DNA from: Paracidovorax avenae
GTDB taxonomy: Bacteria > Pseudomonadota > Gammaproteobacteria > Burkholderiales > Burkholderiaceae_C
Reading direction: 5' to 3'
Length of the DNA: 64,000 nt
Assembly: GCF_040892545.1 (NCBI RefSeq)
Contig: NZ_CP156079.1
Span: forward strand, 4,747,501 to 4,811,500
Of the stretch, positions 5,932-36,185 are shown piece by piece; within the stretch, counting starts at the first letter, position 1; every line of letters begins with the position of its first letter. The position numbers and the translations under genes are program-made. The notes below the pieces were generated by a model that was given only the letters and a program-made list of their open reading frames with translations, did not search any database and was not told the DNA's origin.

Positions 5932-7035
5932 TCAGTGCCTCAGCCAGACGGGCACCTTGAACCGCACGATGGCCAGGTAGGCCGTCACGTAGGTCAGGCC
6001 GAACAGCCCGCAGAACACCACCAGGACCGGCGTATTGCTCCAGAACAGCACGGCCGGCACCACGGTGAGCATCGTGAAGCCCCAGAGATAGGGCGACGTG
6101 CGGTTGTTGCGCATGAGCACCCGCCGCGACTCGTCGTCGTGGAACACCCCGCGCACGATGCGCCGGTAGATGAGCTGGTGGAAATGCAGCGCATCGGCCA
6201 CCCCCGGAGAAACGCCCCGCGCCAGCTTGCGGTAGCTGGAAAACAGCGTCTCCCACACGGGATACATCAGCAGCAGCATGGGGAACCAGGGAGACACGTC
6301 GCGGTTGCGCTGCACCAGCGCGATGCTGCTGAGCGCGATCATCACCCCCCAGATGTAGGCACCGCTGTCGCCCGCGAACAGCATGCCCCGCGGGTAATTC
6401 CAGACCAGAAAGCCCACGGTGGCTGCCGCGGTGCAGATCAGCAGGGAAGCCAGTGCGCGGTCGCCCACCTGCAGGCTCACATGCGCCAGCGCGAGGCAGA
6501 TGATCAATGCCACCATGCCGGCCAGCCCGTTGTAGCCGTCGATGATGTTGAACGCATGCGGCAGGCCCGCGACCGCCAGCACCACGATGCACATCCCCAG
6601 CCAGGGCATCTCCACCAGATGTGCGTCCAGCCAGGGCAGTCCCAGCCGGGGTACGTTCATGTTGAGCACCATCAGCGCGATACCGCCGGAGAGCGCGGTG
6701 AGCAGCAGCCTGTAGCGCACGGGCAGTCGCTGCGTCATGTCCTCCGCCATGCCGCCAATGGCCGCCGGCAGCAGACAGGCCATCCACCAGCCGACCCAGA
6801 TGCCCAGCCGCAGGGATCCAGGATCACCCCACAGGATCGACTGGAACGCACCCAGCGCCCAGCTGATGACCATGCCGGCCAGCAGTGCCGCTCCCCCCAG
6901 GCGGGGCACGTCCCCGAGGTGGAAACGCTGCGGCATGGCATCGCCGTAGTTCGCGGCATGGCCTCGCCCCCAACGGACGATGCAGGCGGCGGCGAGGGCC
7001 GTTGCCAGGAAACTGACCAGAGACAACCAGATCAT
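5932..7035 (-). CDS. WecA/MraY-family polyprenyl-phosphate sugar-1-phosphate transferase
   Basis: This is a 367-residue polytopic membrane enzyme with about ten hydrophobic segments. It has the family signatures [11 protein letters not shown] near the start, [12 protein letters not shown] in the Mg-binding loop, the [14 protein letters not shown] catalytic region, and the [12 protein letters not shown] loop corresponding to the HxHH motif. The family starts lipid-linked glycan synthesis by transferring HexNAc-1-P to undecaprenyl phosphate. The ATGA overlap (7032-7035) with the upstream GT2 gene shows a two-gene operon. It is the likely initiating transferase for the polysaccharide exported by the nearby Wzm/Wzt pair. 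The acidic pair reads ED rather than the usual DD. Confidence 0.9.
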
Positions 7036-7829
7036 GGGGCGCCGATCCTACGCGCTTCGGCGGTATCCGCACGCAACAAAGATCGCGCCTGGTGATACAC
7101 CGGCGACGCCCACAGCCTCAGAAGGCTGCGGACATGCCATCCCAGATGGGCCATGCGTCGCCGGCTGGCGCGCTGGCCGACGTGGCCCACGCGCACCGGC
7201 ACCCTGGCCAGCCGCCAGCCCTTCAGACGCAGGCGCAGGCAGAGATCCACATCCTCGCAATACATGAAATAGCGTTCATCGAATCCGCCCACCCCCTTCC
7301 ATGCGGCGGCCGGAAAAACGAGGAACGCGGCGTTCACCCAGTCCGTCCGGCGATCGGGCCGCCGGAGGATGCGCCGGCGCCAGAGGGCGCCGGGGGTCGG
7401 AAGTTCCCGTTCGGAATCCTGGGGCTTTCCACAGAGGTCCACCTGCTCGGGATAGGCGCAACCGATGCCTGGCTCGGATGCAGCCTGGAGCAACCGCTCG
7501 AACGGATCGGCGTCGAGAAAGGCGACATCGGGATTGAGCACGCCCACGAACGGCTCCACGGCTCCGCTCAATGCCATGTTGTGATTGGCGCCGAAACCCA
7601 GGGGCCGGGCGTTGCGGCGGATATCCAGCGCGAACGGCCAGTCCGTGCGTCCCGGTGGGGGGGGCGGGGATGGCTCCGGTATGTTGAGAGTCAACACGAC
7701 CCGCGTCACGCTCCCTGCGCACCAGCGGGCCATGCCGTGCAGCATGGCATGCAAAAGGGGGCCGTGGCCATGGCTGACGACCGATACAGCCAGGCCGCCA
7801 GAAGGGGATAGTGTTGTCATGAACTGCAT
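7032..7829 (-). CDS. Family 2 glycosyltransferase
   Basis: This 265-residue GT-A enzyme starts at the ATG at 7829, preceded by GGGGAGA about 10 bp ahead. It shows the WbbL/rhamnosyltransferase-like pattern: ARPLGFGANHNMAL, a NPDVAF metal-site region, DWVNAAFLVFPAAAW, and GGFDERYFMYCEDVDLCLRL (acceptor/catalytic ED). Such enzymes add rhamnose or another sugar to the lipid-linked primer. It comes before the WecA-like gene in the same operon and is divergent from the giant fusion gene at 7919. The window also has a dTDP-rhamnose operon, so dTDP-rhamnose is a reasonable donor, by inference only. Confidence 0.88.
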   Translation of the reverse strand: MQFMTTLSPSGGLAVSVVSHGHGPLLHAMLHGMARWCAGSVTRVVLTLNIPEPSPPPPPGRTDWPFALDIRRNARPLGFGANHNMALSGAVEPFVGVLNPDVAFLDADPFERLLQAASEPGIGCAYPEQVDLCGKPQDSERELPTPGALWRRRILRRPDRRTDWVNAAFLVFPAAAWKGVGGFDERYFMYCEDVDLCLRLRLKGWRLARVPVRVGHVGQRASRRRMAHLGWHVRSLLRLWASPVYHQARSLLRADTAEARRIGAP

Positions 7830-7918
7830 ATTGTCGTCTCCCCGGGCCGACGGCCCTGTAGGAGACCACTCACGCAGCCCTGGGCCGCAGCCCATCAGGG
7901 GGCCGTCATAATCCCGGG
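7830..7918. promoter_or_regulatory. Divergent intergenic region between two glycosyltransferase transcripts
   Basis: The 89 bp must carry promoters for both the minus-strand GT2/WecA operon and the plus-strand fusion gene. A CATAAT hexamer ends only 6 bp before the ATG at 7919, and I see no ribosome site before that ATG. The plus-strand message may therefore be nearly leaderless, or the promoter may lie further upstream. No clear -35 is visible. Confidence 0.35.
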
Positions 7919-10900
7919 ATGACCCAAACAATCGAGGATTTGCACGTCTATCTCCGCAGCATCCGCCCCGACGAGCGCACCTCCCTTTCGGTATTGGCAG
8001 AGCAGGTACACCCCGGCGCAACGGTGCTGGACCTGGGGTGCGGCAGCGGCGCCTTGGGCCAGTACCTCGCGCAAACCCGCAATGCCGTCAGCGACGGCGT
8101 GACGTGGAGCGAGGCCGAAGCCGGCCATGCACGTCCCCACTACCGCCGCGTCGTGGTCGACGATCTCGAAACATGCGACCTCGTTACCGTTTTTACCGGC
8201 CAGCGCTATGACTATATCGTCTGTGCCGACGTCCTGGAACACCTGCGCCGTCCGGAGCAGGTGTTGCAGCAGTGCCGCCACCTCCTGGCCCCTGCGGGAC
8301 GCGTGCTGATTTCCGTCCCGAATGCCGGCTACTGCGGCCTCGTGGCAGAGTTGCTGCAGGGTGAGTTCCGCTACCGCGAAGAAGGCCTGCTGGACCGCAC
8401 CCACCTGCGCTTCTTCACGCGACGATCACTGGCACGGTTCCTGGGGGAGCATGCCTGGGCCCTGGAAGACATCGACACCATCCGTCGGGAAATACCGGAA
8501 TCCGAGTTCGACGCCGCATTCGACAAGCTGCCACCCTCAGTGGCCCGGCACCTGCTGGCCGCGCCGGACGCCATGGCCTACCAGTTCATCGCGAGGGCCC
8601 TGCCGGCAGCGGAAGCGGTGGCCAACGATGCAGCAGGCGCAGACCAGGGCATGGAGCCCGCCCGGCCGCTTTTCACCGCCCAGCTCTACTGGGGCACCCG
8701 GCACGGCTTCGCCGAAGAGCAGAAGCTCACGGCCCGCGGGACGATCGGCGAGCACCGCCAGACCCTGCGCTTCGACCTTCCATCCTCCAGCGAGCCCATC
8801 ACCCAGCTGCGCCTCGACCCGGCGGACCGGCCCGGCTTCCTGCATTTGCACGGAATCACACTGCGCGCACCAGACGGCAGCCCCACCTGGGCATGGCAGG
8901 CTGACGCCTCCTCGCGCACCTTGATGGAGACACAGCCACAGCAACAGATGGCCTGGAATCTCCAGGCCCTGCCTGCGGCCGCGGCCGCCAGCCTGGTGCT
9001 GCTGACCGGGGACGACCCGTGGATGCAGCTACCGATTCCACCGGAAGCGCTGGCCGCCGCATGCACCCACCCTGGCAACGCCTGGCTGGAAGTGGACCTG
9101 GGCTGGCCCATGTCGGCCGACTATCTCGCGCTTTCGGGCACCGTCCGCCCACTGCAGGACCAGATCGTCCAATTGAAGGACGAGCACCATGCCACGCAGG
9201 TCAGGATGAATGCCGAGCTGGAGACCGCGCGCAACGCCTGGACAGAGGAACGCCAGGCGATGGAAGGCTGGAACCAGACGCTGGAATCGCAACTCAGGTC
9301 TCTCCAGCAGGCAAACGGTAAGGTGCTACAGCAGTTCAACGAAATTCAGCAGCAACGCAGCGAACTGCAGCAGCAGGCCTCCCAGTCCCTGCGCGACATC
9401 ACGCGGCTGCAGCACGAACTGGGATGCGCGCGCCGGGACTTCAACTCGCTCTCCAGCCACCTGCATTCCATCGAAAACTCCACCGTGTTCCGCGCCACGC
9501 GCCCCATCGTCCACGCCAAGATGCGCCTCGACAAAATCCTGGGCCGGGCACCACGCGCCGTGCAACCGGTCCGCCACATCCCCGTTCCCGTCGCGCCTCC
9601 CGCGCATCCTGTCGATGTCATCGTGCCCGTCTACCGCGGATTGGCCGACACCCGGCTGTGCGTGGAGTCGGTCCTCGCCAGCAGCTGCCGCACGCCCTAT
9701 CGCCTCGTCGTCATCAACGACTGCAGCCCCGAGCCCGAAGTCACGGCCTGGCTGCGTGAACGGGCGGCGGGGGACGAGCGCATCCTGCTGCTCGAGAACG
9801 AGGAAAACCTCGGTTTCGTCGGTACGGTCAACCGGGGCATGGCGCTGAGTGGCAGCAACGATGTGCTGCTGCTCAACAGCGACACGGAAGTCGCCAACGA
9901 CTGGCTCGACCGCATCCGCCAGGCTGCCTACGGCGACGCGAAGGTGGCGTCCGTCACCCCGTTCTCCAACAATGCGACGATCTGCAGCTACCCGCGCTTC
10001 TGCAAGGACAACGACCTCCCTCCGGGCTACGACACGGCGCGCCTGGACGCCCTGTGCGCCAGGACGAATCCTGGCGCCGTGGTCGATGTGCCGACGGGCG
10101 TGGGTTTCTGCATGTACATCCGACGGGACTGCCTCCAGCAGGTCGGCCTCTTCGACACGGAACACTTCGGCAAGGGCTACGGTGAAGAGAACGACTTCTG
10201 CCAGCGCGCCCAGGCCGCCGGCTGGCGCAACCTGCACCTGCTGGACACCTTCGTGCTGCACACCGGCGGCGTGAGCTTCGGCGACAGCAAGAGTCCCCGC
10301 GAGTTGGCTGCCATGGAGATCCTGCGCCGCCTGCACCCGAACTACGACCGCGACGTGCATGCCTTCGTGCGCACTGATCCTGCGGCGCCCTACCGGCTGG
10401 CGCTCGATGCGGCACGCATCACGGAGGCCGGCCAACCGCTGGTGCTGACCGTGCTGCACGACCGCGCGGGCGGTACGGTGCGCCATGTCCGCGAGCTGGC
10501 ATCCCACCTGGGCGGGCAGGCGCAGTTCCTCACGCTGACGCCAGCGCACGGCCACAGCGTCAAGCTGCGAATGGCGAGCGAAGAGGAAGGGTTCGAACTG
10601 GCGTTCCGGCTGAACGACCAGTACGACGCACTGATCGACGTGCTGCGCCGCCTGGGCGTGAGCCATGTGCACTTCCACCATCTGCTGGGCCATGGCCAGG
10701 AAGTGCGCAATCTGCCCCATCTGCTGGGCGTGGCCTACGACTTCACGGCACACGACTACTACAGCTATTGCACCCACATCTCCATGACCGGTACCGGCCA
10801 CCGGTATGCCGGGGAGACCGGGCCGGGCCAGTGCCAGTGCTGCCCCGCCGACATGCAGGCGCCGACCGGAGGCACGGTGGCCCAATGGCGCCAGGCCAAT

Positions 10901-11803
10901 GCCCGCCTGCTGGATGGCGCACGCTACGTGCTCGCCCCGAGCCAGGATACGGCCCGCCGCATCGCGGCGTTCGCGCCCAATGCGCGGGTACTCGCCGTGC
11001 CGCACACCGACATGCCGGAAGCTTCCGCGCTGCCGGTGCCAGCGCCCCGCCCGCTGCCGGAAGGCCGCAGGCTGAAGGTGGCGGTCATCGGCGCGCTCAG
11101 CGCCATCAAGGGTGCGGACCTTCTGGAGGCCGTCGCCATCGAAGCCGCGCGCCGCAATGCGCCCGTGGATTTGCATCTCATCGGCTACGGCTATCGCAGC
11201 CTGCAGACCCAGCCCCGCGCGCACCTCACCGTGCACGGCGAATACGCCGAAAAAGACCTGCCACAGCTGCTGGAGTGGCTGCAACCGGACATCGTGTGGT
11301 TCCCGGCCCAGTGGCCCGAGACCTACAGCTACACGCTCAGCGCCGCACTCCTCGCGGGACTGCCCGTGGCCGTTCCGGACATCGGCGCATTCCAGGAGCG
11401 TGTCGTCGGCCGCCCCTGGAGCTGGGTGCGCCCCTGGGATGCCACGGCGCCCCAATGGCTGGCCTGGTTCGACGAGATCCGCAGCATGCACTTCGCGACC
11501 GGCGAAGCACCTGCATTGCCGCAGCCGGTGCCCCTGCCCGACGGCATGGATGGCCAGGCCGCGCCGGCAGGCTTCCGTTATGACACCGATTACCTGTCGG
11601 GCGTCACGCCCGTGGTGCCTTCTCAACCGCTTTCCCTGGAGGAACTACAGCGCCTCCAGCCCCAGGAAACCACCACGGCGGCCGCGAAATCGGGCCTGCT
11701 CTCGGCAGTGGTGTACCTTCGCTCGCTGCCGGTGCTGCGCGGCGTGGCGCGGCGCATCCCGTCCCATTGGCAGCGCCGCGTGAAGAACTGGCTGCAGGCA
11801 TGA
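7919..11803 (+). CDS. Methyltransferase - beta-domain - coiled coil - GT2 - GT4 fusion (polysaccharide synthesis/termination)
   Basis: This is a 1294-residue soluble multidomain protein. About residues 1-225 form a class I SAM-dependent methyltransferase (VLDLGCGSGALGQYL as SAM loop; YDYIVCADVLEHLRRPEQVL). About 245-390 is a beta-rich domain with LRLDPADRPG, a pattern I associate with carbohydrate-linked modules of glycosyltransferases. About 404-525 is a Gln/Glu-rich coiled coil. About 564-815 is a GT2 domain (VDVIVPVYRG, LLLNSDTEV, YGEENDFCQRA). About 840-1185 is a GT4/GT-B domain (GALSAIKGADLL, PETYSYTLSAALLAGLPVAVPD). The neighbouring Wzm/Wzt pair and second methyltransferase place it in an ABC-dependent O-antigen-like pathway. 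There, a methyltransferase on a coiled coil acts as a chain terminator and length ruler (WbdD is the known case). The combined role in elongation and capping is inference. Confidence 0.88.
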   Translation: MTQTIEDLHVYLRSIRPDERTSLSVLAEQVHPGATVLDLGCGSGALGQYLAQTRNAVSDGVTWSEAEAGHARPHYRRVVVDDLETCDLVTVFTGQRYDYIVCADVLEHLRRPEQVLQQCRHLLAPAGRVLISVPNAGYCGLVAELLQGEFRYREEGLLDRTHLRFFTRRSLARFLGEHAWALEDIDTIRREIPESEFDAAFDKLPPSVARHLLAAPDAMAYQFIARALPAAEAVANDAAGADQGMEPARPLFTAQLYWGTRHGFAEEQKLTARGTIGEHRQTLRFDLPSSSEPITQLRLDPADRPGFLHLHGITLRAPDGSPTWAWQADASSRTLMETQPQQQMAWNLQALPAAAAASLVLLTGDDPWMQLPIPPEALAAACTHPGNAWLEVDLGWPMSADYLALSGTVRPLQDQIVQLKDEHHATQVRMNAELETARNAWTEERQAMEGWNQTLESQLRSLQQANGKVLQQFNEIQQQRSELQQQASQSLRDITRLQHELGCARRDFNSLSSHLHSIENSTVFRATRPIVHAKMRLDKILGRAPRAVQPVRHIPVPVAPPAHPVDVIVPVYRGLADTRLCVESVLASSCRTPYRLVVINDCSPEPEVTAWLRERAAGDERILLLENEENLGFVGTVNRGMALSGSNDVLLLNSDTEVANDWLDRIRQAAYGDAKVASVTPFSNNATICSYPRFCKDNDLPPGYDTARLDALCARTNPGAVVDVPTGVGFCMYIRRDCLQQVGLFDTEHFGKGYGEENDFCQRAQAAGWRNLHLLDTFVLHTGGVSFGDSKSPRELAAMEILRRLHPNYDRDVHAFVRTDPAAPYRLALDAARITEAGQPLVLTVLHDRAGGTVRHVRELASHLGGQAQFLTLTPAHGHSVKLRMASEEEGFELAFRLNDQYDALIDVLRRLGVSHVHFHHLLGHGQEVRNLPHLLGVAYDFTAHDYYSYCTHISMTGTGHRYAGETGPGQCQCCPADMQAPTGGTVAQWRQANARLLDGARYVLAPSQDTARRIAAFAPNARVLAVPHTDMPEASALPVPAPRPLPEGRRLKVAVIGALSAIKGADLLEAVAIEAARRNAPVDLHLIGYGYRSLQTQPRAHLTVHGEYAEKDLPQLLEWLQPDIVWFPAQWPETYSYTLSAALLAGLPVAVPDIGAFQERVVGRPWSWVRPWDATAPQWLAWFDEIRSMHFATGEAPALPQPVPLPDGMDGQAAPAGFRYDTDYLSGVTPVVPSQPLSLEELQRLQPQETTTAAAKSGLLSAVVYLRSLPVLRGVARRIPSHWQRRVKNWLQA

Positions 11804-11874: not shown

Positions 11875-12732
11875 TCAGCGCCCCAGCAACAGGAAGATCT
11901 CGTTGTTGAGCAGCCACTCGGGCGGATACTTGCCCCGCAACTCTTCCGGAATGTCCATCTGCAGGCTCCGGCGTTCCTGCCGGACCACGTGGAAACCCGC
12001 TTCCGCCGTCAGGCCGACCAGCTCGTCCGCCGTGAGACGGTTCAAGGCCCGGTACTCATTGAAGACGAAGCGCTTGTAGCCCTCCGGACCGAAATCCGCA
12101 AAACCGAAGTCGGTCTCCGCAGCATCGATGGGCCCCTCGTGCGCGCGAATGATCTCCCACAGTGCCTCTTCGCTCACCAGCAGGTGGTGCCATGGCACCT
12201 CGTCATAGCGGCGCAGATGCGATCCATACGGGGAGTAGAACAGCGGCTCGATCTGGATGAAGAACACTCCTCCCGGCCGCAGGCAGGCATGCAGATCCTT
12301 CAGGATGGGAAGAAGCTGGCCACGCTCCACGTGCTCGAACGTGGACCAACTCATGATTCCGTCCACCGGGGCCTGCCGGCCTGCCAGGGGAGCCCCGGGC
12401 TGGATGGTTTCGAACGTGAGCGCAGAGGGGATGCGCGACATGCCCAGTTGCTCGCGGGCGATGCGCGGCAGCTTCCGGTATTCCTGGCGGATATCCACGC
12501 CGTGGATGCCCGTGGCACCATGCCTCAGCACCAGCGCCAGATCGGTGATGCCGTCGCCGCATCCGAAATTCAGCAGCCTGGACGTGCGCAGATCCAGGGC
12601 TCCGCCGACCCAGTCGTTGACGACATCCGCGGCATAGTTGAAATGCGCCCGGAACCATTCGTCCGTGATGCGCCCCCCATCCCAGGGAGCCGTCCCCCAG
12701 AGACGCTCCTGCCACCGATTCATCCAGCTCAT
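11875..12732 (-). CDS. SAM-dependent methyltransferase of the polysaccharide cluster
   Basis: This is a 285-residue class I methyltransferase with a SAM-binding loop (LLNFGCGDGITDLAL), then GVDIRQEY and a SWSTFEHVERG strand. LRPGGVFFIQIEPLFYSPYGSHL is like the proteins that modify O-antigen sugars or chain ends. The start at 12732 overlaps the preceding acyltransferase stop as ATGA, so it is the last gene of the wzm-wzt-acyltransferase operon. It may methylate an internal or terminal sugar; the substrate is unknown. Confidence 0.85.
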   Translation of the reverse strand: MSWMNRWQERLWGTAPWDGGRITDEWFRAHFNYAADVVNDWVGGALDLRTSRLLNFGCGDGITDLALVLRHGATGIHGVDIRQEYRKLPRIAREQLGMSRIPSALTFETIQPGAPLAGRQAPVDGIMSWSTFEHVERGQLLPILKDLHACLRPGGVFFIQIEPLFYSPYGSHLRRYDEVPWHHLLVSEEALWEIIRAHEGPIDAAETDFGFADFGPEGYKRFVFNEYRALNRLTADELVGLTAEAGFHVVRQERRSLQMDIPEELRGKYPPEWLLNNEIFLLLGR

Positions 12733-13679
12733 GGGTTCACCGCCTTCTCCTCCATCGGATTGCGCCTGGCATCGGCACGCGCCCGGAAGAAGCGCGGGGC
12801 CTCCGTCCACAAATGCCAGGCGGCGGGCCGCTGCCTGAGCAGCCCGTCAAAATGCCCAAAGATCCTGTCTGTCAGTTCCTGCGGATCGGTGAACGTGCCG
12901 AGCGGTGCGATCCGCAGGGTTCTGCGGCCCGACTGCAGATCGATACCCATGTAGAACACCGTGGCCGGCAATGAGCGGTCCACAGCGATCTGCGGCAGGA
13001 CGGCAGGTACGCTGACCGGCTGCCCCAGGATGGTCGTGGTGCGGGTGACGTTGACCTGATCCTCCGGCACGTCGATGACCACCACCACCTGTTCATCGCG
13101 GCGAAGCGCCTGCCTTACGCCCTCCATGCCGCCAGGCACGAAGACCACCGGGCGATGCAGCGCCATCTCGACCGAGCGCATGCGTGCGCGCACGTAGCGC
13201 CCGAATATCCATCGCCCGATGAAATCTCGGCCGCCGGGGGCTGCCAGCACCATGTTGCCCCGCATTCCTGCAGCGGCCGCATGGCACAGCGCCCACATCC
13301 CGGCCCCCCAATGGAAAGTGAACAGGAGGCCCGGCTTTCCAACGCCGTCCCATGCCCCGTCCACCTCCACATGGCGCCGTAGCCAGGCCGGAGAGCGTGC
13401 GCGGAAAAGGTAATGGTCCGCATGGTCCAGCAAGGTGACCAACCTGCGCTCCGCAAGCCAGTCCTCGCGAGGAATGCGGACCCATCCCTGCGAACTGGCC
13501 TGCGCCAATGCTGCCTCGCAGGCATCGCGGTAAAGCCATCGCCAACGGGCCATGCGGCGGAACAGGCGGAAGCACACCGTCCACGGCAGCACGGCCGCCA
13601 GGCCTGGCAGCAGCACCACTTCCAGCGCGTCCCGGCTTTCCCTTTTCCACCGCGACCAGGCACGGTCCCAACGCGTCAT
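12729..13679 (-). CDS. LpxL/HtrB-like LPLAT-superfamily acyltransferase
   Basis: This 316-residue protein has one N-terminal hydrophobic segment (LEVVLLPGLAAVLPWTVCF). A lipid A acyltransferase-like core follows, with GKPGLLFTFHWGAGMWALCH (catalytic HX4-type box near HWGAGMW), then VVVIDVPEDQVNVTRTTT and FMGIDLQSG-type strands. The family transfers acyl chains from acyl-ACP to lipid A precursors or other membrane or sugar acceptors. Its place between wzt and a methyltransferase gene suggests it acylates the polysaccharide, its lipid carrier or lipid A in a strain-specific way. The HX4D/E box is not clean, so the exact chemistry is uncertain. Confidence 0.75.
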   Translation of the reverse strand: MTRWDRAWSRWKRESRDALEVVLLPGLAAVLPWTVCFRLFRRMARWRWLYRDACEAALAQASSQGWVRIPREDWLAERRLVTLLDHADHYLFRARSPAWLRRHVEVDGAWDGVGKPGLLFTFHWGAGMWALCHAAAAGMRGNMVLAAPGGRDFIGRWIFGRYVRARMRSVEMALHRPVVFVPGGMEGVRQALRRDEQVVVVIDVPEDQVNVTRTTTILGQPVSVPAVLPQIAVDRSLPATVFYMGIDLQSGRRTLRIAPLGTFTDPQELTDRIFGHFDGLLRQRPAAWHLWTEAPRFFRARADARRNPMEEKAVNP

Positions 13680-13686
13680 CACCGGC

Positions 13687-14967
13687 TCATTCCCAGCGAT
13701 GCGGCAAACGGACAAGGCCGGGCATGGGTTTGGGAAAGGAAAAATGGAAATGCAGGAACTGAAACCATTCGTCGTACACGACCAGTCCCGTCTCATCGAA
13801 GAGATAGACGCTGATGACGTAGTCGCCCGTGTGCAGCGGCAACTCGGGGAAGGTCAGCACCGAGCGCCAGGAGCCGTCCTCGAGCCGGACCGGCTCTGCC
13901 CCTTCCTCATGGGTTCCGAGCGAAGTGATGCCGACCCCACGGGATTGCTCGATCATGAATCCGATGTTCGGACGCTCGTCCCCGCGGCCACGCACCACGA
14001 TGGAGACCACCAGATCCTTGCTCTGCAGCATACCGGGACGGTCCCCCTCCGGTTCGGCAAGGTCCTGGACATCCACGGAAACAATGCAGGCGCTGCCTGC
14101 ATCCCCCGAAGCAACGTGTTTCCGGTCAGGGCCTTGCACGGCAGGGGGAACTCCCGGAGCCAGGCCTGCCGCAGGCAATGCGCTCTCCACCTGAAGTGCT
14201 TCTCCCTGAGACGCACCGTCGCGCAACCGGGTGTGCAAATCGTAGGCGGCCAGCACCGGCTCCGTCGGCCCGAACTGCTCCACGCTGCCATCCTTCAACC
14301 ACAAGGCCACATCGCACAGATGCCGGATGTGATAGGGGCTGTGGGAACAGAACAGGATGGTGCAGCCCGCCTCGCGGAAGGCCATGATGCGGTCCACGCA
14401 CTTTTTCTGGAAATGCTGGTCCCCCACCGCCAGTGCCTCGTCGATGATGAGCACGTCAGGCTGCACCGCGGTGACCAGGGCAAAGGCCAGACGCACCGCC
14501 ATGCCGGAGGAATAGGTCTTGACAGGCCGGTCCAGCGCATGCCCGAGTTCGCTGAACTCGACGATCTCGGGCTCCAGGCGCTGCATCGTCTCCCGGTCGA
14601 TACCGATCAGGCTGCCGCCGAAGTACAGATTGTCCCGCCCGCTGAAATCCGGGTGGAACCCGGCCCCGAGCTCCAGAATGGCCGTCACCCGCCCCACCCG
14701 CTCTATCGAACCGGTCGATGGCTGAAGTGTTCCCGCCAGCAGTTTCAGCAGCGAACTCTTGCCGGCACCGTTGTCACCGATCACGCCGATGCACTGGCCA
14801 CGCCGCAACTCGAAAGACACATCCTTCAGTGCCCAGTGACTGCGGTGTCGGGAACGGCCGGTGATAAGCGACTTGAGCCGCTGGCGGGGAGACGCATAGA
14901 TGCGGTACTCCTTGCCAAGGTTCTTCACTCGCAGAACCGTCGACGACAATGACTGCAGGGCACTCAT
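13687..14967 (-). CDS. wzt: Polysaccharide ABC transporter ATP-binding protein Wzt with C-terminal glycan-binding domain
   Basis: The 426-residue protein has an ABC ATPase in residues ~1-250: Walker A GVIGDNGAGKSSLLKLLAG, signature TYSSGMAVRL, Walker B DVLIIDEALAVGD, then SHSPYHIRHLC. The remaining ~170 residues (LQSKDLVVSIVVRG ... LPLHTGDYVISVYLFDE) match the Wzt C-terminal beta-sandwich. In O9a-type systems this domain recognises the capped non-reducing end of the finished glycan. The start at 14967 overlaps the wzm stop as ATGA. It drives export of undecaprenyl-linked polysaccharide across the inner membrane. The C-terminal domain predicts a chain-terminated, probably methylated, glycan. 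Confidence 0.93.
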   Translation of the reverse strand: MSALQSLSSTVLRVKNLGKEYRIYASPRQRLKSLITGRSRHRSHWALKDVSFELRRGQCIGVIGDNGAGKSSLLKLLAGTLQPSTGSIERVGRVTAILELGAGFHPDFSGRDNLYFGGSLIGIDRETMQRLEPEIVEFSELGHALDRPVKTYSSGMAVRLAFALVTAVQPDVLIIDEALAVGDQHFQKKCVDRIMAFREAGCTILFCSHSPYHIRHLCDVALWLKDGSVEQFGPTEPVLAAYDLHTRLRDGASQGEALQVESALPAAGLAPGVPPAVQGPDRKHVASGDAGSACIVSVDVQDLAEPEGDRPGMLQSKDLVVSIVVRGRGDERPNIGFMIEQSRGVGITSLGTHEEGAEPVRLEDGSWRSVLTFPELPLHTGDYVISVYLFDETGLVVYDEWFQFLHFHFSFPKPMPGLVRLPHRWE

Positions 14968-15776
14968 AGCCAGTCCACCAGTTGGTCGCGGCTGCGCCGG
15001 ACGACGACATTCAGCGCCATGGCGACAACCACCAGCCATGCTGCGCCAGCCATCCACACGCTCGCTGGAGGCCAGTCCCCCAGCAGCAGCACCTGCTGAT
15101 ACCCGATGACCAAAGCCGTCATGGGATTGAGCCACAGCACCCAGCGCCAGTTCTCAGGGAACATGGTCAGAGGGAACAGGATGGGAGTGAGATAGATCCC
15201 CACGGAAAGCAGGAAACCCACGATCTGCACCGTGTCGCGCAGGGCGGCGGCAAGAATCGCAAGCAGGTACCCGATGAGCAGACAGAGGAGCAATTGCAGC
15301 GCCAGCAGCGGCACCATGGCCAACAGGGCCGGACGCACTCCGTGCAGAGGGGTATAGACCAAGGCCACCAGCAAAAGCAGCGGCCCGAAGATAACGCCGC
15401 TGGCCAGAACGGCCCGCGTCGTGAAGAGCACGGGCGGCAATGGATTCTTCTGCAGGGTTCCCCCCGCCTCGATCAAGCTGTTCATGCCCCGGGATACGGC
15501 ATCGCAGAATGCCATCCATGGCAGCGCACCCACGACCAGGAACGTGCCTACGGCATGCGTGGGGGCTCCATTGCCGAGGCGCATGGAGAACACGACATCG
15601 AAAACGAGGTAATAGGCCGCGACGGTCAGCAAGGGCTGCAAGTACGGCCACAGGATGCCGACGGCCGTACCTGCGTGGCGCGCCGCCACCTCGCGCCGGG
15701 TCAACACCCACACCAGAGAGCGGGCGCTCCAGACGGCACGCCACTCGTTCCGCAAAATCTGCATGAAGAAAACCAT
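14964..15776 (-). CDS. wzm: Polysaccharide ABC transporter permease Wzm
   Basis: This is a 270-residue inner-membrane ABC-2 permease with six hydrophobic segments. The N-terminal amphipathic segment (LVWVLTRREVAARHAGTAVG) is followed by ILWPYLQPLLTVAAYYLVF and the C-terminal LTPILFPLTMFPENWRWVL loop characteristic of Wzm/TagG proteins. The start was taken at 15776 (MVFFMQ); an ATG at 15764 is equally possible and neither has a strong ribosome site. It forms the channel with Wzt. No Wzx flippase or Wzy polymerase is seen nearby, supporting an ABC-dependent pathway. Confidence 0.92.
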   Translation of the reverse strand: MVFFMQILRNEWRAVWSARSLVWVLTRREVAARHAGTAVGILWPYLQPLLTVAAYYLVFDVVFSMRLGNGAPTHAVGTFLVVGALPWMAFCDAVSRGMNSLIEAGGTLQKNPLPPVLFTTRAVLASGVIFGPLLLLVALVYTPLHGVRPALLAMVPLLALQLLLCLLIGYLLAILAAALRDTVQIVGFLLSVGIYLTPILFPLTMFPENWRWVLWLNPMTALVIGYQQVLLLGDWPPASVWMAGAAWLVVVAMALNVVVRRSRDQLVDWL

Positions 15777-32446: not shown

Positions 32447-32992
32447 TCAGGGAAAGACGTCCGCCTCGCGCAGGGCCGCGCCCTTCGCGTCCTTGGCGGA
32501 CAGGCTGGGCTCACCAGAGAAACGCCAGTCGATGCCGATCTCGGGGTCGTTCCAGGCGATGCAGCGCTCGTGTTCGGGCGCGTAGTAGTCGGTGGTCTTG
32601 TAGAGGAAGTCCGCGCTCTCGCTGAGCACGACGAACCCATGACCGAAGCCCGGGGGCACCCACATCTGGCGCTGGTTCTCTTCGCTCAGTTCCTCGCCGA
32701 CCCATTGCCCGAAGGTGGGCGAACTCCTGCGCAGGTCCACGGCGACGTCGAAGACGGTGCCGCGCACGACACGCACCAGCTTTCCCTGGGGCTGGCGGAT
32801 CTGGTAGTGCAGGCCGCGCAGGACGCCGCGCGCGCTGCGACTGTGGTTGTCCTGCACGAAGGCATGGCGGCTGCCGGTGGCTTCGTCGAAGGCGCGCTGG
32901 TTGAAACTCTCGAAGAAGAAACCGCGTGCGTCGCCGAACACTTTGGGTTCGAGGACGACAACGTCGGGGATGCGCGTGGGAAGGACGTTCAT
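32447..32992 (-). CDS. rfbC: dTDP-4-dehydrorhamnose 3,5-epimerase
   Basis: This 181-residue RmlC-type cupin is the third step of dTDP-L-rhamnose synthesis. It contains FVQDNHSRSARGVLRGLHYQ with the catalytic His, KLVRVVRGTVFDVAVDLRR, MWVPPGFGHGFVVLSE and DFLYKTTDYYAPEHE with the Tyr near the active site. It is the last gene of the rfbB-D-A-C operon and converges on the GH42-like gene (19 bp apart). Confidence 0.97.
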   Translation of the reverse strand: MNVLPTRIPDVVVLEPKVFGDARGFFFESFNQRAFDEATGSRHAFVQDNHSRSARGVLRGLHYQIRQPQGKLVRVVRGTVFDVAVDLRRSSPTFGQWVGEELSEENQRQMWVPPGFGHGFVVLSESADFLYKTTDYYAPEHERCIAWNDPEIGIDWRFSGEPSLSAKDAKGAALREADVFP

Positions 32993-33037
32993 GGGAAAGC
33001 GTTGGATCGGTGGCGCGGTCAGCGATAGGGGTGACGA

Positions 33038-33913
33038 TCAACCGGCCAGCAGCCTGAGGAGGTAGGCACCATACCCGCTCTTGGCGAGCGGCCTGGCGAG
33101 GCGCTCGAGCTGGTCGTCGTCGATGAGGCGGTGCCGCCAGGCGATCTCCTCCGGACAGGCGATCTTGAGCCCCTGCCGATGCTCCAGGGTCGCGATGAAC
33201 TGTCCGGCTTCGAGCAGGCTCTCGTGTGTTCCGGTATCGAGCCAGGCGTATCCGCGGCCCATGATCTCGACGTGCAGGTCTTCGTGCTCGAGGTAGAGGC
33301 GGTTGAGGTCGGTGATTTCCAGTTCGCCGCGCGCGGAGGGCTTCAGGCTGGCGGCGCGTTCGACCACGTGCCGGTCGTAGAAGTAGAGGCCCGTGACGGC
33401 ATAGCTGGACTTCGGGACCTTGGGCTTTTCCTCGATCGACAGGACCTTGCCGGTGGCGTCGAACTCGGCCACGCCGTAGCGTTCGGGATCCTGCACGTGG
33501 TAGGCGAACACGCTGGCCCCCTCCTCGCGCCCCATGGCGCTGCGCAGGAGATCCTCGAAATCATGGCCGTGGAAGATGTTGTCGCCCAGCACGAGCGCGC
33601 TGGGCTGGCCATCCAGGAATTTCTCCCCGATGAGGAAAGCCTGCGCCAGGCCGTCGGGGCTGGGCTGCACGGCATAGCTCAGGCGGATGCCCCACTGGCT
33701 TCCATCGCCCAGCAGCTGCTCGAACCGTGGAGTGTCCTGCGGTGTGCTGATGATGAGGATGTCGCGGATGCCCGCCAGCATCAGGGTGCTCAGCGGGTAG
33801 TAGATCATCGGCTTGTCGTACACCGGAAGCAGTTGCTTGCTGATGGCGAGCGTGGCGGGGTGCAGGCGGGTGCCCGACCCTCCGGCCAGGATGATGCCCT
33901 TGCGTGCTGTCAT
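33038..33913 (-). CDS. rfbA: Glucose-1-phosphate thymidylyltransferase
   Basis: This 291-residue RmlA makes dTDP-glucose from Glc-1-P and dTTP. It shows the nucleotide-binding [30 protein letters not shown], the catalytic VLGDNIFHG and [20 protein letters not shown]. The length and motifs are those of the RmlA class. It sits between rfbD and rfbC in the rhamnose operon. Confidence 0.97.
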
Positions 33914-33941
33914 GGTGTGTGCAGGAAGTTTTTTGGGGTTC

Positions 33942-34832
33942 TCAGAGGATTTCCGCGAGCATCCGCGCGATGCCCGCCTGCCAGTGCGGCAGGGCCAGGC
34001 CGAAGGTGGCCTGGAACCTGCGCGTATCGAGCCGCGAGTTGTGCGGCCGGACGGCGGGCGTGGGAAATGCGCTGGTGGGTACGGCGGCCACGTCGCGCGC
34101 GGCGATCTTCAGCGCAGGCTGAATGCGCTGCGCCTGCTCGAGCACGTAGCAGGCATAGGCATGCCAGTGGGTTTCTCCTGCGGCCACCAGGTGGTAGAGA
34201 CCCGCGTCGGCGGGCCGCTGCTGCAGGTGGCGGATCGCATGGGCCGTGGCGTCGGCCAGCAGGTCGGCGCCCGTGGGTGCCCCCCACTGGTCGTCGATGA
34301 CGGTCAGCCGCTCGCGCTCCTGCGCCAGCCGCAGCATGGTCTTGGCGAAATTTCCGCCGCGGGCGCCATAGACCCAGCTCGTGCGCAGAATGAGGTGCCG
34401 TGCGCCGCTCGCCTGGATCCGCTGTTCGCCTTCGAGCTTCGTACGGCCATAGACCGACAGCGGCGCCGGCACGTCGTCTTCCGTCCAGGGGCGGGAGCCG
34501 CTGCCATCGAACACGTAGTCGGTGCTGTAGTGCACCAGCCATGCCCCCAGGCGGGCGGCTTCCTCGGCCAGCACGCCCGGCGTGGTGGCGTTGAGGGTGC
34601 GGGCCAGGTCCGGCTCGCTCTCGGCCTTGTCCACCGCGGTATGGGCGGCAGCATTGACGATGACATCGGGTCGCAGGGCGCGCACCGTGCGGGCGATGTC
34701 ATCGGGCCGGGAAAAATCCCCGCAGTGCGAAGTGCTGTCGAAATCGAGGGCCGTGACCGTGCCCAGGACGGACAGGCTGCGCTGCAGTTCCCACCCGACC
34801 TGTCCGCCATTGCCGAAGAGAAGGATGTTCAT
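33942..34832 (-). CDS. rfbD: dTDP-4-dehydrorhamnose reductase
   Basis: This 296-residue RmlD-family SDR is the last step to dTDP-L-rhamnose. It has NAD(P)-binding [32 protein letters not shown], the catalytic triad region [14 protein letters not shown] with YGRTKLEGE, and [19 protein letters not shown]. The start at 34832 overlaps the rfbB stop as ATGA. Confidence 0.97.
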
Positions 34833-35914
34833 GCGGTGATGGCGTCCTGCACGGCGGGCTTGCGGTACTGGCGGTCGATCCACTCGCGGTAGGCGCCGCT
34901 GGTCACGGCATCCACCCATTCGCCATGCGCGAGGTACCACTCCACGGTCTTGCGGATGCCGGTCTCGAAGGTTTCGGCGGGCTTCCATCCGAGTTCGCGC
35001 TCGATCTTGCGGGCGTCGATGGCATAGCGGCGGTCGTGGCCCGGGCGATCCTTGACGTAGGCGATCTGGCTTTCATAGCGCTCGCCATCGGCACGCGGGC
35101 GCAGCTCGTCGAGCAGGGCGCAGATGGTCTTCACGATCTCGATGTTGGGCTTTTCGTTCCAGCCGCCCACGTTGTAGGTCTCGCCGGGCTTGCCGGCCTG
35201 CAGCACGCGGCGAATGGCGCTGCAGTGGTCGCGCACATAGAGCCAGTCGCGGATCTGCATGCCGTCGCCATACACGGGCAGCGGCTTGCCGGCCAGTGCG
35301 TTGACGATCATCAGTGGGATCAGCTTCTCGGGGAAGTGGAAGGGGCCGTAGTTGTTGCTGCAATTGGTGGTCAGCACCGGCAGGCCGTAGGTGTGGTGCC
35401 AGGCCCGGACGAGGTGATCACTGGCGGCCTTGCTGGCGGAGTACGGGCTGTTGGGCTCGTAGGAATGGGTTTCGGCGAAGGCCGGGGCCTCGGGCGCCAG
35501 GGTGCCGTAGACCTCGTCGGTGGAGACATGCAGGAACCGGAACGCGGCGCGCTCATCCCCGGGCAGGGACTGCCAGTACTCGCGGACGGCTTCGAGCAGG
35601 CGGAAGGTGCCGACCACGTTGGTCTGGATGAAGTCTTCCGGGCCGTGGATGGAGCGGTCCACATGCGATTCGGCCGCGAAATTCACGATGGCACGCGGCC
35701 GGTGCTCGGTCAGCAGCCGGGAGAGAAGCTCCCGGTCGCCGATGTCCCCCTGGACGAACAGGTGGCGCGCGTCGCCCTGCAGCGAGGCGAGGTTCTGCAG
35801 GTTGCCTGCGTAGGTGAGCTTGTCGAGGTTGACGACGGGCTCATCGCCGCAGGCCAGCCAGTCGAGGACGAAGTTGGCGCCGATGAAACCCGCGCCGCCG
35901 GTGACCAGAATCAT
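34829..35914 (-). CDS. rfbB: dTDP-glucose 4,6-dehydratase
   Basis: This 361-residue RmlB extended SDR is the second step of dTDP-rhamnose synthesis. It contains [19 protein letters not shown], the TDEVYGTL active-site strand, [15 protein letters not shown] (YxxxK), and [18 protein letters not shown]. The start was set at 35914; codons further upstream do not match RmlB. It is the first gene of the rfbBDAC operon. A promoter-like GATAAT lies about 40 bp upstream. Confidence 0.97.
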
Positions 35915-35953
35915 GGATCGTTTGAGCAAAGACGCCTTGCGGCCGAACGCGGG

Positions 35954-35985
35954 ATTATCCCATCGCGTTACAAACGGCCGTAACG
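35954..35985 (-). promoter_or_regulatory. Promoter and inverted repeat upstream of rfbB
   Basis: On the minus strand GATAAT (35954-35959) is a good -10 for the rhamnose operon, with a weak TTACGG -35 at 18 bp. An inverted repeat CGTTAC (35966-35971) / GTAACG (35980-35985) with an 8-bp spacer overlaps the -35 and could be an operator. The interpretation rests on spacing only. Confidence 0.4.
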
Positions 35986-36185
35986 AAGCGCACGAGGAGG
36001 GCCGCGTGGGCCGGAGGACGGCGCTTCGCAAGACCCCGCATGATGCACTGCAACAGGACGCGGAGGCTGCGGCAGGGTAGAGTGGAACGGCAAGGAGCGG
36101 GGAACATGGACCGGGTCCGCCGCGCGCTGGCCGGGCAAGAGCACGTCAACAACTATCCCCCGCCCAAGGCACAAGGGAGGCACCG

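What the first reader, a model, noticed from the sequence alone, without database searches (positions are those of the whole stretch)
7919..11803. Single-chain methyltransferase / coiled-coil / GT2 / GT4 protein: possible fused glycan polymerase, terminator and ruler
One reading frame joins a SAM methyltransferase, a beta-rich module, a ~120-residue Gln/Glu-rich coiled coil and two different glycosyltransferase folds. Nearby are Wzm and a Wzt with a C-terminal glycan-binding domain. In known O9a-type pathways, chain termination (WbdD, methyltransferase with a coiled-coil ruler) and elongation (WbdA, tandem glycosyltransferases) are separate proteins. Here both appear in one polypeptide, and the coiled coil lies between the capping and polymerising parts, the layout a built-in molecular ruler would need. 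This specific combination is the most distinctive system in the window.
Basis: partly seen in the sequence, partly recalled or inferred. Interest (0 to 1): 0.8.

Follow-up and report, generated by a model that had tools for sequence, protein, structure and literature searches.

The report
Fused sugar-chain builder, capper and ruler
A single large bacterial protein appears to carry the two enzymes that lengthen a surface sugar chain, a rod-like spacer and the enzyme that caps the chain; this is a new variant of a design already known from Klebsiella and Geobacillus, and its relatives form a natural series of rod lengths for testing how cells measure sugar chains.

Summary
ORF 7919-11803 (+, 1294 aa) encodes a class I SAM methyltransferase (13-232), a mostly-beta module (250-398), a ~120-residue coiled-coil helix (400-519), a GT-A/GT2 domain (558-820) and a GT-B/GT4 domain (838-1230). 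WecA-like, Wzm and Wzt genes lie beside it; this Wzt has the genome's only Wzt_C domain. Of 26 full fusions with at least 8 kb of 3' flank, 22 have an adjacent Wzm-Wzt pair.

The layout is not unprecedented. K. pneumoniae O7 ORF6 and O12 WbbB are published single-chain polymerase/coil/terminator proteins, and Geobacillus WsaE fuses a methyltransferase with two GTs. This is a kinase-less variant.

New here: 30 distinct coil lengths (68-242 residues) fall near whole helical turns (period 3.62; 0 of 5000 jittered sets as regular), while catalytic parts hardly vary. Elsewhere the GT2-GT4 pair is a separate gene; in 16 such loci examined, the preceding gene encodes a candidate capping enzyme, mostly coil-tailed (9 sulfotransferase-like, 4 GT2, 3 methyltransferase).

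Best explanation: an O-antigen polymerase-terminator with a built-in ruler. Activity, cap chemistry and length control are inferred, not shown.

The parts
7919..11803 (+). Fused polymerase/terminator, 1294 aa (P0001)
7955..8614 (+). Class I SAM methyltransferase domain, residues 13-232; motif VLDLGCGSG
8666..9112 (+). Mostly-beta module, residues 250-398, unnamed family; possibly carbohydrate-binding (inference)
   Evidence: strands between 251 and 395, short helices 333-337 and 375-382; no Pfam match for the window's own module; no PDB sequence match
9116..9475 (+). Coiled-coil rod, residues 400-519
   Evidence: single helix H400-519; periodicity
9482..9538 (+). Conserved helix after the coil (STVFRATRP... 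motif), residues 522-540; possible membrane contact (inference)
   Evidence: moment 0.52
9590..10378 (+). GT-A / GT2 glycosyltransferase domain, residues 558-820
10430..11608 (+). GT-B / GT4 glycosyltransferase domain, residues 838-1230
11672..11797 (+). C-terminal basic helices, residues 1252-1293
   Evidence: moment 0.65, mean hydrophobicity -0.43
5932..7035 (-). WecA-like polyprenyl-phosphate sugar-phosphate transferase (initiation)
   Evidence: Pfam PF00953 2e-32; WecA model 4.7e-16, below its cut-off
7032..7835 (-). GT2-like glycosyltransferase, candidate adaptor enzyme (start approximate)
   Evidence: weak Pfam hits below cut-off; conserved position
11875..12732 (-). Separate methyltransferase, MT2 (start approximate)
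   Evidence: PF13489 2e-10
12729..13796 (-). Acyltransferase-like protein (my reading by eye; no family match)
   Evidence: found in some relatives
13687..14970 (-). Wzt with C-terminal Wzt_C domain; the only Wzt_C match in the genome
   Evidence: best PDB sequence matches are chains named ABC transporter (6amx, 8dku, 7k2t; Wzt identity recalled), ATPase part only
14964..15776 (-). Wzm (ABC2 membrane)
32450..36031 (-). rmlBDAC, dTDP-L-rhamnose synthesis, a possible donor source

Best explanation
The protein is a single-chain O-polysaccharide polymerase-terminator of the ABC-transporter pathway. A WecA-like enzyme starts the chain on undecaprenol and a small GT2 adds an adaptor sugar (both inferred). 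The C-terminal GT2 and GT4 domains, near the membrane, add the two alternating linkages of the repeat. The coiled coil, probably oligomeric, holds the methyltransferase about 18 nm away (120 residues at 0.15 nm each, inference), so only chains that span the rod are methylated at the growing end. The methyl cap stops growth, and Wzt recognises it through its C-terminal domain for export by Wzm. The beta module may hold the chain near the methyltransferase. Shown: domain folds, gene neighbourhood, coil, coil-length behaviour. Inferred: activities, donors (dTDP-rhamnose is one candidate), cap and ruler.
For: MT, GT-A and GT-B folds. Coil placed as in O7 ORF6 and O12 WbbB. WecA-like, Wzm and Wzt genes adjacent, with the only Wzt_C match of the genome. 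Shared neighbourhood in relatives; 22 of 26 full fusions with at least 8 kb of 3' flank have Wzm-Wzt, and in 22 of all 23 pairs the Wzt aligns to the window's through its C-terminal part. Coil lengths 75-242 while MT+beta varies 377-388 and the GT2 part 281-285. Lengths fall near helical turns. The two halves also occur apart: separate GT2-GT4 proteins and MT-beta-tail proteins without a GT, such as P0194 and P0240 on contigs of 3.5-3.9 Mb.
Against: No glycan structure or assay. WsaE methylation in vitro was independent of chain length, so fusion alone need not give a ruler. L095 and L100 join MT to GT2-GT4 with no matched beta module and only a short gap. Four full fusions with long 3' flank lack Wzm-Wzt nearby (L059, L065, L076, L094), and of 41 loci with GT2-GT4 but no matched MT or beta module only 16 show a Wzm-Wzt pair (several contigs are short). 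Turn-quantised coil lengths are expected of any coiled coil, and the lengths fit 3.6 but not 3.5 residues. Only 15 of 47 MT-beta tails pass the heptad test (some are truncated; P0240 fails). rml genes were found in only 6 of 93 loci, so rhamnose is weakly supported. A second methyltransferase in the locus (MT2) could make the cap instead.
Confidence: 0.66

Rival explanations
1. Polymerase and methyltransferase without a ruler: the MT methylates sugars along or at the end of the chain irrespective of length, as reported for WsaE in vitro, the coil only makes an oligomer, and length is set by expression or export.
For: [quoted passage not shown] L095 and L100 have no matched beta module and no room for a long coil between MT and GT2.
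Against: The coil is the one strongly variable part among otherwise rigid domains and keeps helical phase; a Wzt resembling the window's through its C-terminus accompanies 22 of 23 fusions with a Wzm-Wzt pair.
Confidence: 0.2
2. The capping methyl is made by the separate MT2 (11875-12732) in the wzt-wzm operon; the fused MT has another role.
For: MT2 is convergent with the fusion and was found beside several relatives (for example L038-L043, L046, L056).
Against: MT2 was not detected near other loci that keep the fusion and Wzt (for example L048, L051, L054, L055, L057, L062).
Confidence: 0.08
3. The protein serves another surface glycan (exopolysaccharide or protein glycan) and not the LPS O-chain.
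For: WsaE itself makes an S-layer protein glycan; the genome has three Wzy_C-type proteins, unassigned.
Against: WecA-like, Wzm and Wzt genes beside it, with the only Wzt_C match in the genome.
Confidence: 0.06

Closest known systems
K. pneumoniae O7 ORF6 (PMC11231755; abstract, passages and first part of Discussion read)
   Same: N-terminal methyltransferase, CBM-like module, coiled coil and two C-terminal GT modules in one chain; adaptor GT and Wzm/Wzt in the cluster
   Different: ORF6 has a kinase domain and two GT2 modules and needs a separate ribofuranosyltransferase; here no kinase match, and the GTs are GT2 plus GT4
WbbB of K. pneumoniae O12 / R. terrigena (as described in PMC11231755; the 2017 primary paper is not held)
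   Same: terminator, coil and two polymerising GTs in one polypeptide; coil stated there to be an established ruler
   Different: terminator there is a beta-Kdo glycosyltransferase (GT99); here a methyltransferase
WsaE of Geobacillus stearothermophilus (PMC2943079, PMC3898925; passages read)
   Same: methyltransferase plus two GT domains in one chain beside wzm-wzt; methyl cap
   Different: the repeat there also needs WsaF; whether WsaE has a beta module or coil was not in the passages; sequence not fetched, so homology untested
WbdD of E. coli O9a and O8 (PMC3482155, passages read)
   Same: methyltransferase tip on a coil, methyl-type cap, chain-length control
   Different: separate from its polymerase WbdA; the O9a form has a kinase, the O8 form does not
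E. coli O101 methyltransferase (PMC13168486, passages read)
   Same: methyltransferase with coiled coil, O-methyl group, wzm-wzt; ruler role proposed there
   Different: described as an MT with a C-terminal coil, separate from the GTs

Membership tests
Coil-tipped terminators of ABC-dependent O-chains (general kind) | capping-type enzyme domain at the far end of an extended coiled coil | tested here: met
   (domain order and fold; capping activity itself not tested)
Coil-tipped terminators of ABC-dependent O-chains (general kind) | Wzm/Wzt transporter with C-terminal Wzt_C domain in the same locus | tested here: met
Coil-tipped terminators of ABC-dependent O-chains (general kind) | membrane-proximal amphipathic helix after the coil | tested here: inconclusive
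   helix 522-540, moment 0.52, mean hydrophobicity -0.23
Coil-tipped terminators of ABC-dependent O-chains (general kind) | cap stops growth and coil length sets chain length | not testable with these tools
   needs glycan analysis
WbdD (O9a, methyltransferase-kinase) | kinase domain between methyltransferase and coil | tested here: not met
   no kinase family among the Pfam matches; 250-398 is strands with two short helices in the model
K. pneumoniae O7 ORF6 | kinase domain plus two GT2 modules | tested here: not met
   no kinase match; second GT is GT-B/GT4
WbbB (O12) | N-terminal GT99 Kdo transferase | tested here: not met
   N-terminus is a class I methyltransferase
WsaE | methyltransferase and two GT domains in one chain next to wzm-wzt | tested here: met
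WsaE | alpha-1,2 and alpha-1,3 rhamnosyltransferase activities, 2-O-methylation | not testable with these tools
   activity assay needed; rmlBDAC lies in the window
WsaE | sequence homology over full length | not tested
   WsaE sequence was not fetched

The most novel reading that the evidence does not exclude
One conserved GT2-GT4 polymerase pair has been repeatedly coupled, by fusion or as the next gene, to interchangeable capping enzymes, many of them tipped on coiled coils: methyltransferases, GT2 enzymes and a sulfotransferase-coiled-coil type that would make sulfate-ended chains. Together with coils of 68-242 residues that change by near-whole helical turns, this is a naturally evolved kit of glycan rulers.
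Probability: 0.3. Interest if true: 0.65.

Novelty: new variant of a known kind. Interest (0 to 1): 0.42.

Why it matters
How cells set the length of surface polysaccharides is directly testable here: relatives share the same catalytic parts but differ in coil length over more than threefold, so natural orthologues could show whether chain length follows coil length without engineering. The swap of capping enzymes in front of a conserved polymerase pair suggests how new chain ends evolve, and points to a candidate sulfate-type terminator. Searches listed no paper whose title or shown abstract describes one; most listed papers were not read.

Tried and rejected
Considered and rejected: (a) two genes or a frameshift; the frame is open and relatives are full-length. 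(b) The minus-strand ORF 9326-11626 (766 aa) as the real gene; its codon-position GC pattern (0.86/0.47/0.71) is not that of the neighbouring genes, whereas the plus-strand frame has family matches. (c) WbdD (O9a), O7 ORF6 or WbbB membership; a defining domain is missing. (d) Five + strand ORFs between 14 and 7811 have no family match; on the minus strand five ORFs between 2740 and 8021 do.

Led nowhere: the beta module has no Pfam match for the window copy (of two relatives scanned beside it one gave a chance-level hit, E 0.09) and no PDB sequence match as a profile. A profile of the GT4 half found no PDB sequence relative at 0.01, though the fold is clear. One search listed no paper on this organism's O-chain structure; PMC11597636 passages describe a strain-specific ABC-dependent O-chain cluster in A. 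oryzae, and I did not establish whether it is the same locus. WbdD and WbbB were not among the PDB sequence hits at E<=1; that does not exclude distant kinship. The class-wide genome search gave no match over the whole query in the other 184 genomes; the longest were both in G068, residues 443-1293 and 8-784 (the latter with one stop), so the full fusion is narrow in distribution.

Results against my reading are in the Against line. Further: the gene before GT2-GT4 in L092, also scanned, is a polysaccharide export protein and no capping enzyme. Rows dropped: 7 of 121 proteins lacked a landmark; 10 of 165 lacked coil landmarks, and some of the 155 kept are one gene fetched twice, so distinct lengths were tested; L060, L063 and L072 are frame-broken and were not counted as full fusions. 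L059 starts at a contig end and has only part of the MT, but was counted.
Full report

Surroundings. On the minus strand upstream lie a GT2-like gene (7032-~7835), a WecA-like gene (5932-7035) and an amino-acid kinase family gene that I take for argB (recalled name). Convergent downstream lie a second methyltransferase, an acyltransferase-like protein without family match, Wzt with a Wzt_C domain, and Wzm. Wzt_C matches once in the 5.63 Mb genome; the whole fusion occurs once, the other seven matches being methyltransferase pieces. rmlBDAC lies at 32450-36031. The genus is Paracidovorax, inferred from named homologues.

Relatives. The protein search gave 2377 homologues; the best 120 were listed. 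Among these 80, 32 have methyltransferase, beta module, GT2 and GT4 matches in one open frame; with 13 loci from Paracidovorax the total is 45. Of 26 full fusions with at least 8 kb of 3' flank, 22 have an adjacent Wzm-Wzt pair; counting L053 (7.1 kb) there are 23 pairs, and in 22 of them the Wzt aligns to the window's Wzt through its C-terminal part (L082 is the exception). The four without a pair are L059, L065, L076 and L094. Ten flanking ORFs of these four were scanned, not all of them: none is Wzx or Wzy; L076 has rmlB and rmlA directly after the fusion. Of 41 loci with GT2-GT4 but no matched MT or beta module, 16 have a pair. Of 16 other Paracidovorax genomes, 13 carry a full-length orthologue and three (G192, G197, G200) do not. 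None of the other 184 genomes drawn across the class gave a match over the whole query.

The coil. In 114 of 121 proteins with all landmarks, MT plus beta spans 377-388 residues, the GT2 part 281-285 and the GT4 part 283-292, but the coil spans 75-242. With locus proteins added, 155 of 165 proteins give 30 distinct coil lengths from 68 to 242. These lengths are periodic at 3.62 residues (resultant 0.709, scan 2.2-12); in 5000 sets jittered by up to 3 residues the best resultant was never as high (mean 0.387). At exactly 3.5 residues there is no signal (resultant 0.28; 3729 of 20000 jittered sets as good), so steps mix 7 and 11 residues rather than strict heptads. Linker, C-tail and GT2-part lengths give 0.21, 0.13 and 0.25 at 3.6. 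Insertions therefore keep helical phase, as expected for a true coiled coil, and the rod is the part free to change length. The sequence itself has period 3.5 (0 of 2000 shuffles; 114 of 116 homologues at p<=0.05). Relatedness of sequences is not corrected for.

The parts elsewhere. In many other bacteria the GT2-GT4 pair is a separate protein of about 740 residues. Of the 48 loci without a full fusion, I tested the gene just before GT2-GT4 in the 16 where a candidate capping ORF was apparent; the rest were fused to other parts, cut by contig ends, broken, or not examined, and L092's was an export protein. Nine of the 16 encode mutually homologous sulfotransferase-like proteins with a coil-like C-terminus (E<=5.6e-38 to L069; Pfam Sulfotransfer_3 above its cut-off only in L069 and L093). 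Four encode GT2 plus coil (L070, L080, L083, L107). Three encode methyltransferases: L073 (Methyltransf_24), L089 (FkbM type) and L087 (Methyltransf_23), of which L087 and L089 show no coil by the test used and L073 is borderline (54 of 1000 shuffles). Heptad periodicity at p<=0.02 holds in 8 of the 9 sulfotransferase-like proteins (L093 0.061) and 3 of the 4 GT2 ones (L080 0.029). In fused relatives the part before GT2-GT4 is Methyltransf_24 in L088 and L111 and a GT2 in L103. Five of the nine sulfotransferase loci have a Wzm-Wzt pair, and none of those five Wzt aligns to the window's through the C-terminus, which speaks against cap-dependent export in that group; all four GT2-coil loci have a Wzt that does. 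Conversely, of 120 best hits to the N-terminal half, 47 have MT and beta with a tail of 60 or more residues and no GT match; some are contig fragments, and only 15 of 47 tails pass the heptad test. So both halves exist as separate genes, and the window protein is a fusion of two known kinds of part.

Comparison with the literature. PMC11231755 (abstract, passages and the first part of the Discussion) states that O12 WbbB does polymerisation and termination in one enzyme with a coiled-coil ruler, that O7 ORF6 is methyltransferase-kinase-CBM-coil-two GTs, and that the termination strategy is widespread. [quoted passage not shown] a cluster with wzm, wzt and WsaE/WsaF matches was noted in Xanthomonas oryzae (PMC3898925 passages). 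The E. coli O8 WbdD lacks a kinase and methylates sugar hydroxyls directly (PMC3482155 passages), which is the cap type I predict here. A sulfotransferase-domain ORF next to a WbbB-like gene was noted in Aeromonas salmonicida without an assigned role (PMC4483657 passages).

Judgement. The kinase-less combination methyltransferase, beta module, coil, GT2 and GT4 is a new variant; no title or shown abstract in searches gives a biochemical account of it, and most of those papers were not read. The natural coil-length series and the swapped terminators are the parts worth following.

Noticed in passing
L069:8812-9903, L077, L078, L081, L090, L091, L093, L096, L099 (gene before GT2-GT4): Mutually homologous sulfotransferase-like proteins with coiled-coil-like C-termini directly before the polymerase gene; candidate sulfate-type chain terminators. 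L081 and L096 are near duplicates.
   Followed up: partly
L070, L080, L083, L107: GT2 enzyme with C-terminal coil directly before the same GT2-GT4 gene; all four loci have a Wzt resembling the window's through its C-terminus.
   Followed up: partly
L095:8327-14020, L100:9980-13594: Proteins of Lamprocystis and Allochromatium join methyltransferase to GT2-GT4 with no matched beta module and only a short gap, an exception to the ruler layout.
   Followed up: no
window 12729-13796: Acyltransferase-like protein (by eye) with no Pfam or NCBIfam match, found between MT2 and Wzt or near Wzt in some relatives.
   Followed up: no
P0001 residues 1134-1142: The GT4 domain has an invariant Glu (E1134) but a nearly invariant Ala (A1142) at the +8 place where the recalled GT4 EX7E motif has its second Glu.
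   Followed up: no
G192, G197, G200: Three of 16 other Paracidovorax genomes lack a full-length orthologue; what replaces it was not examined.
   Followed up: no
L060, L063, L072: Relatives whose fusion gene is split over several frames: assembly errors or broken genes.
   Followed up: no
L045:8372-9487, L076:13600-15665: rmlB just before, or rmlB and rmlA just after, the fusion gene, hinting at rhamnose donors; rml genes were found in 6 of 93 loci.
   Followed up: partly
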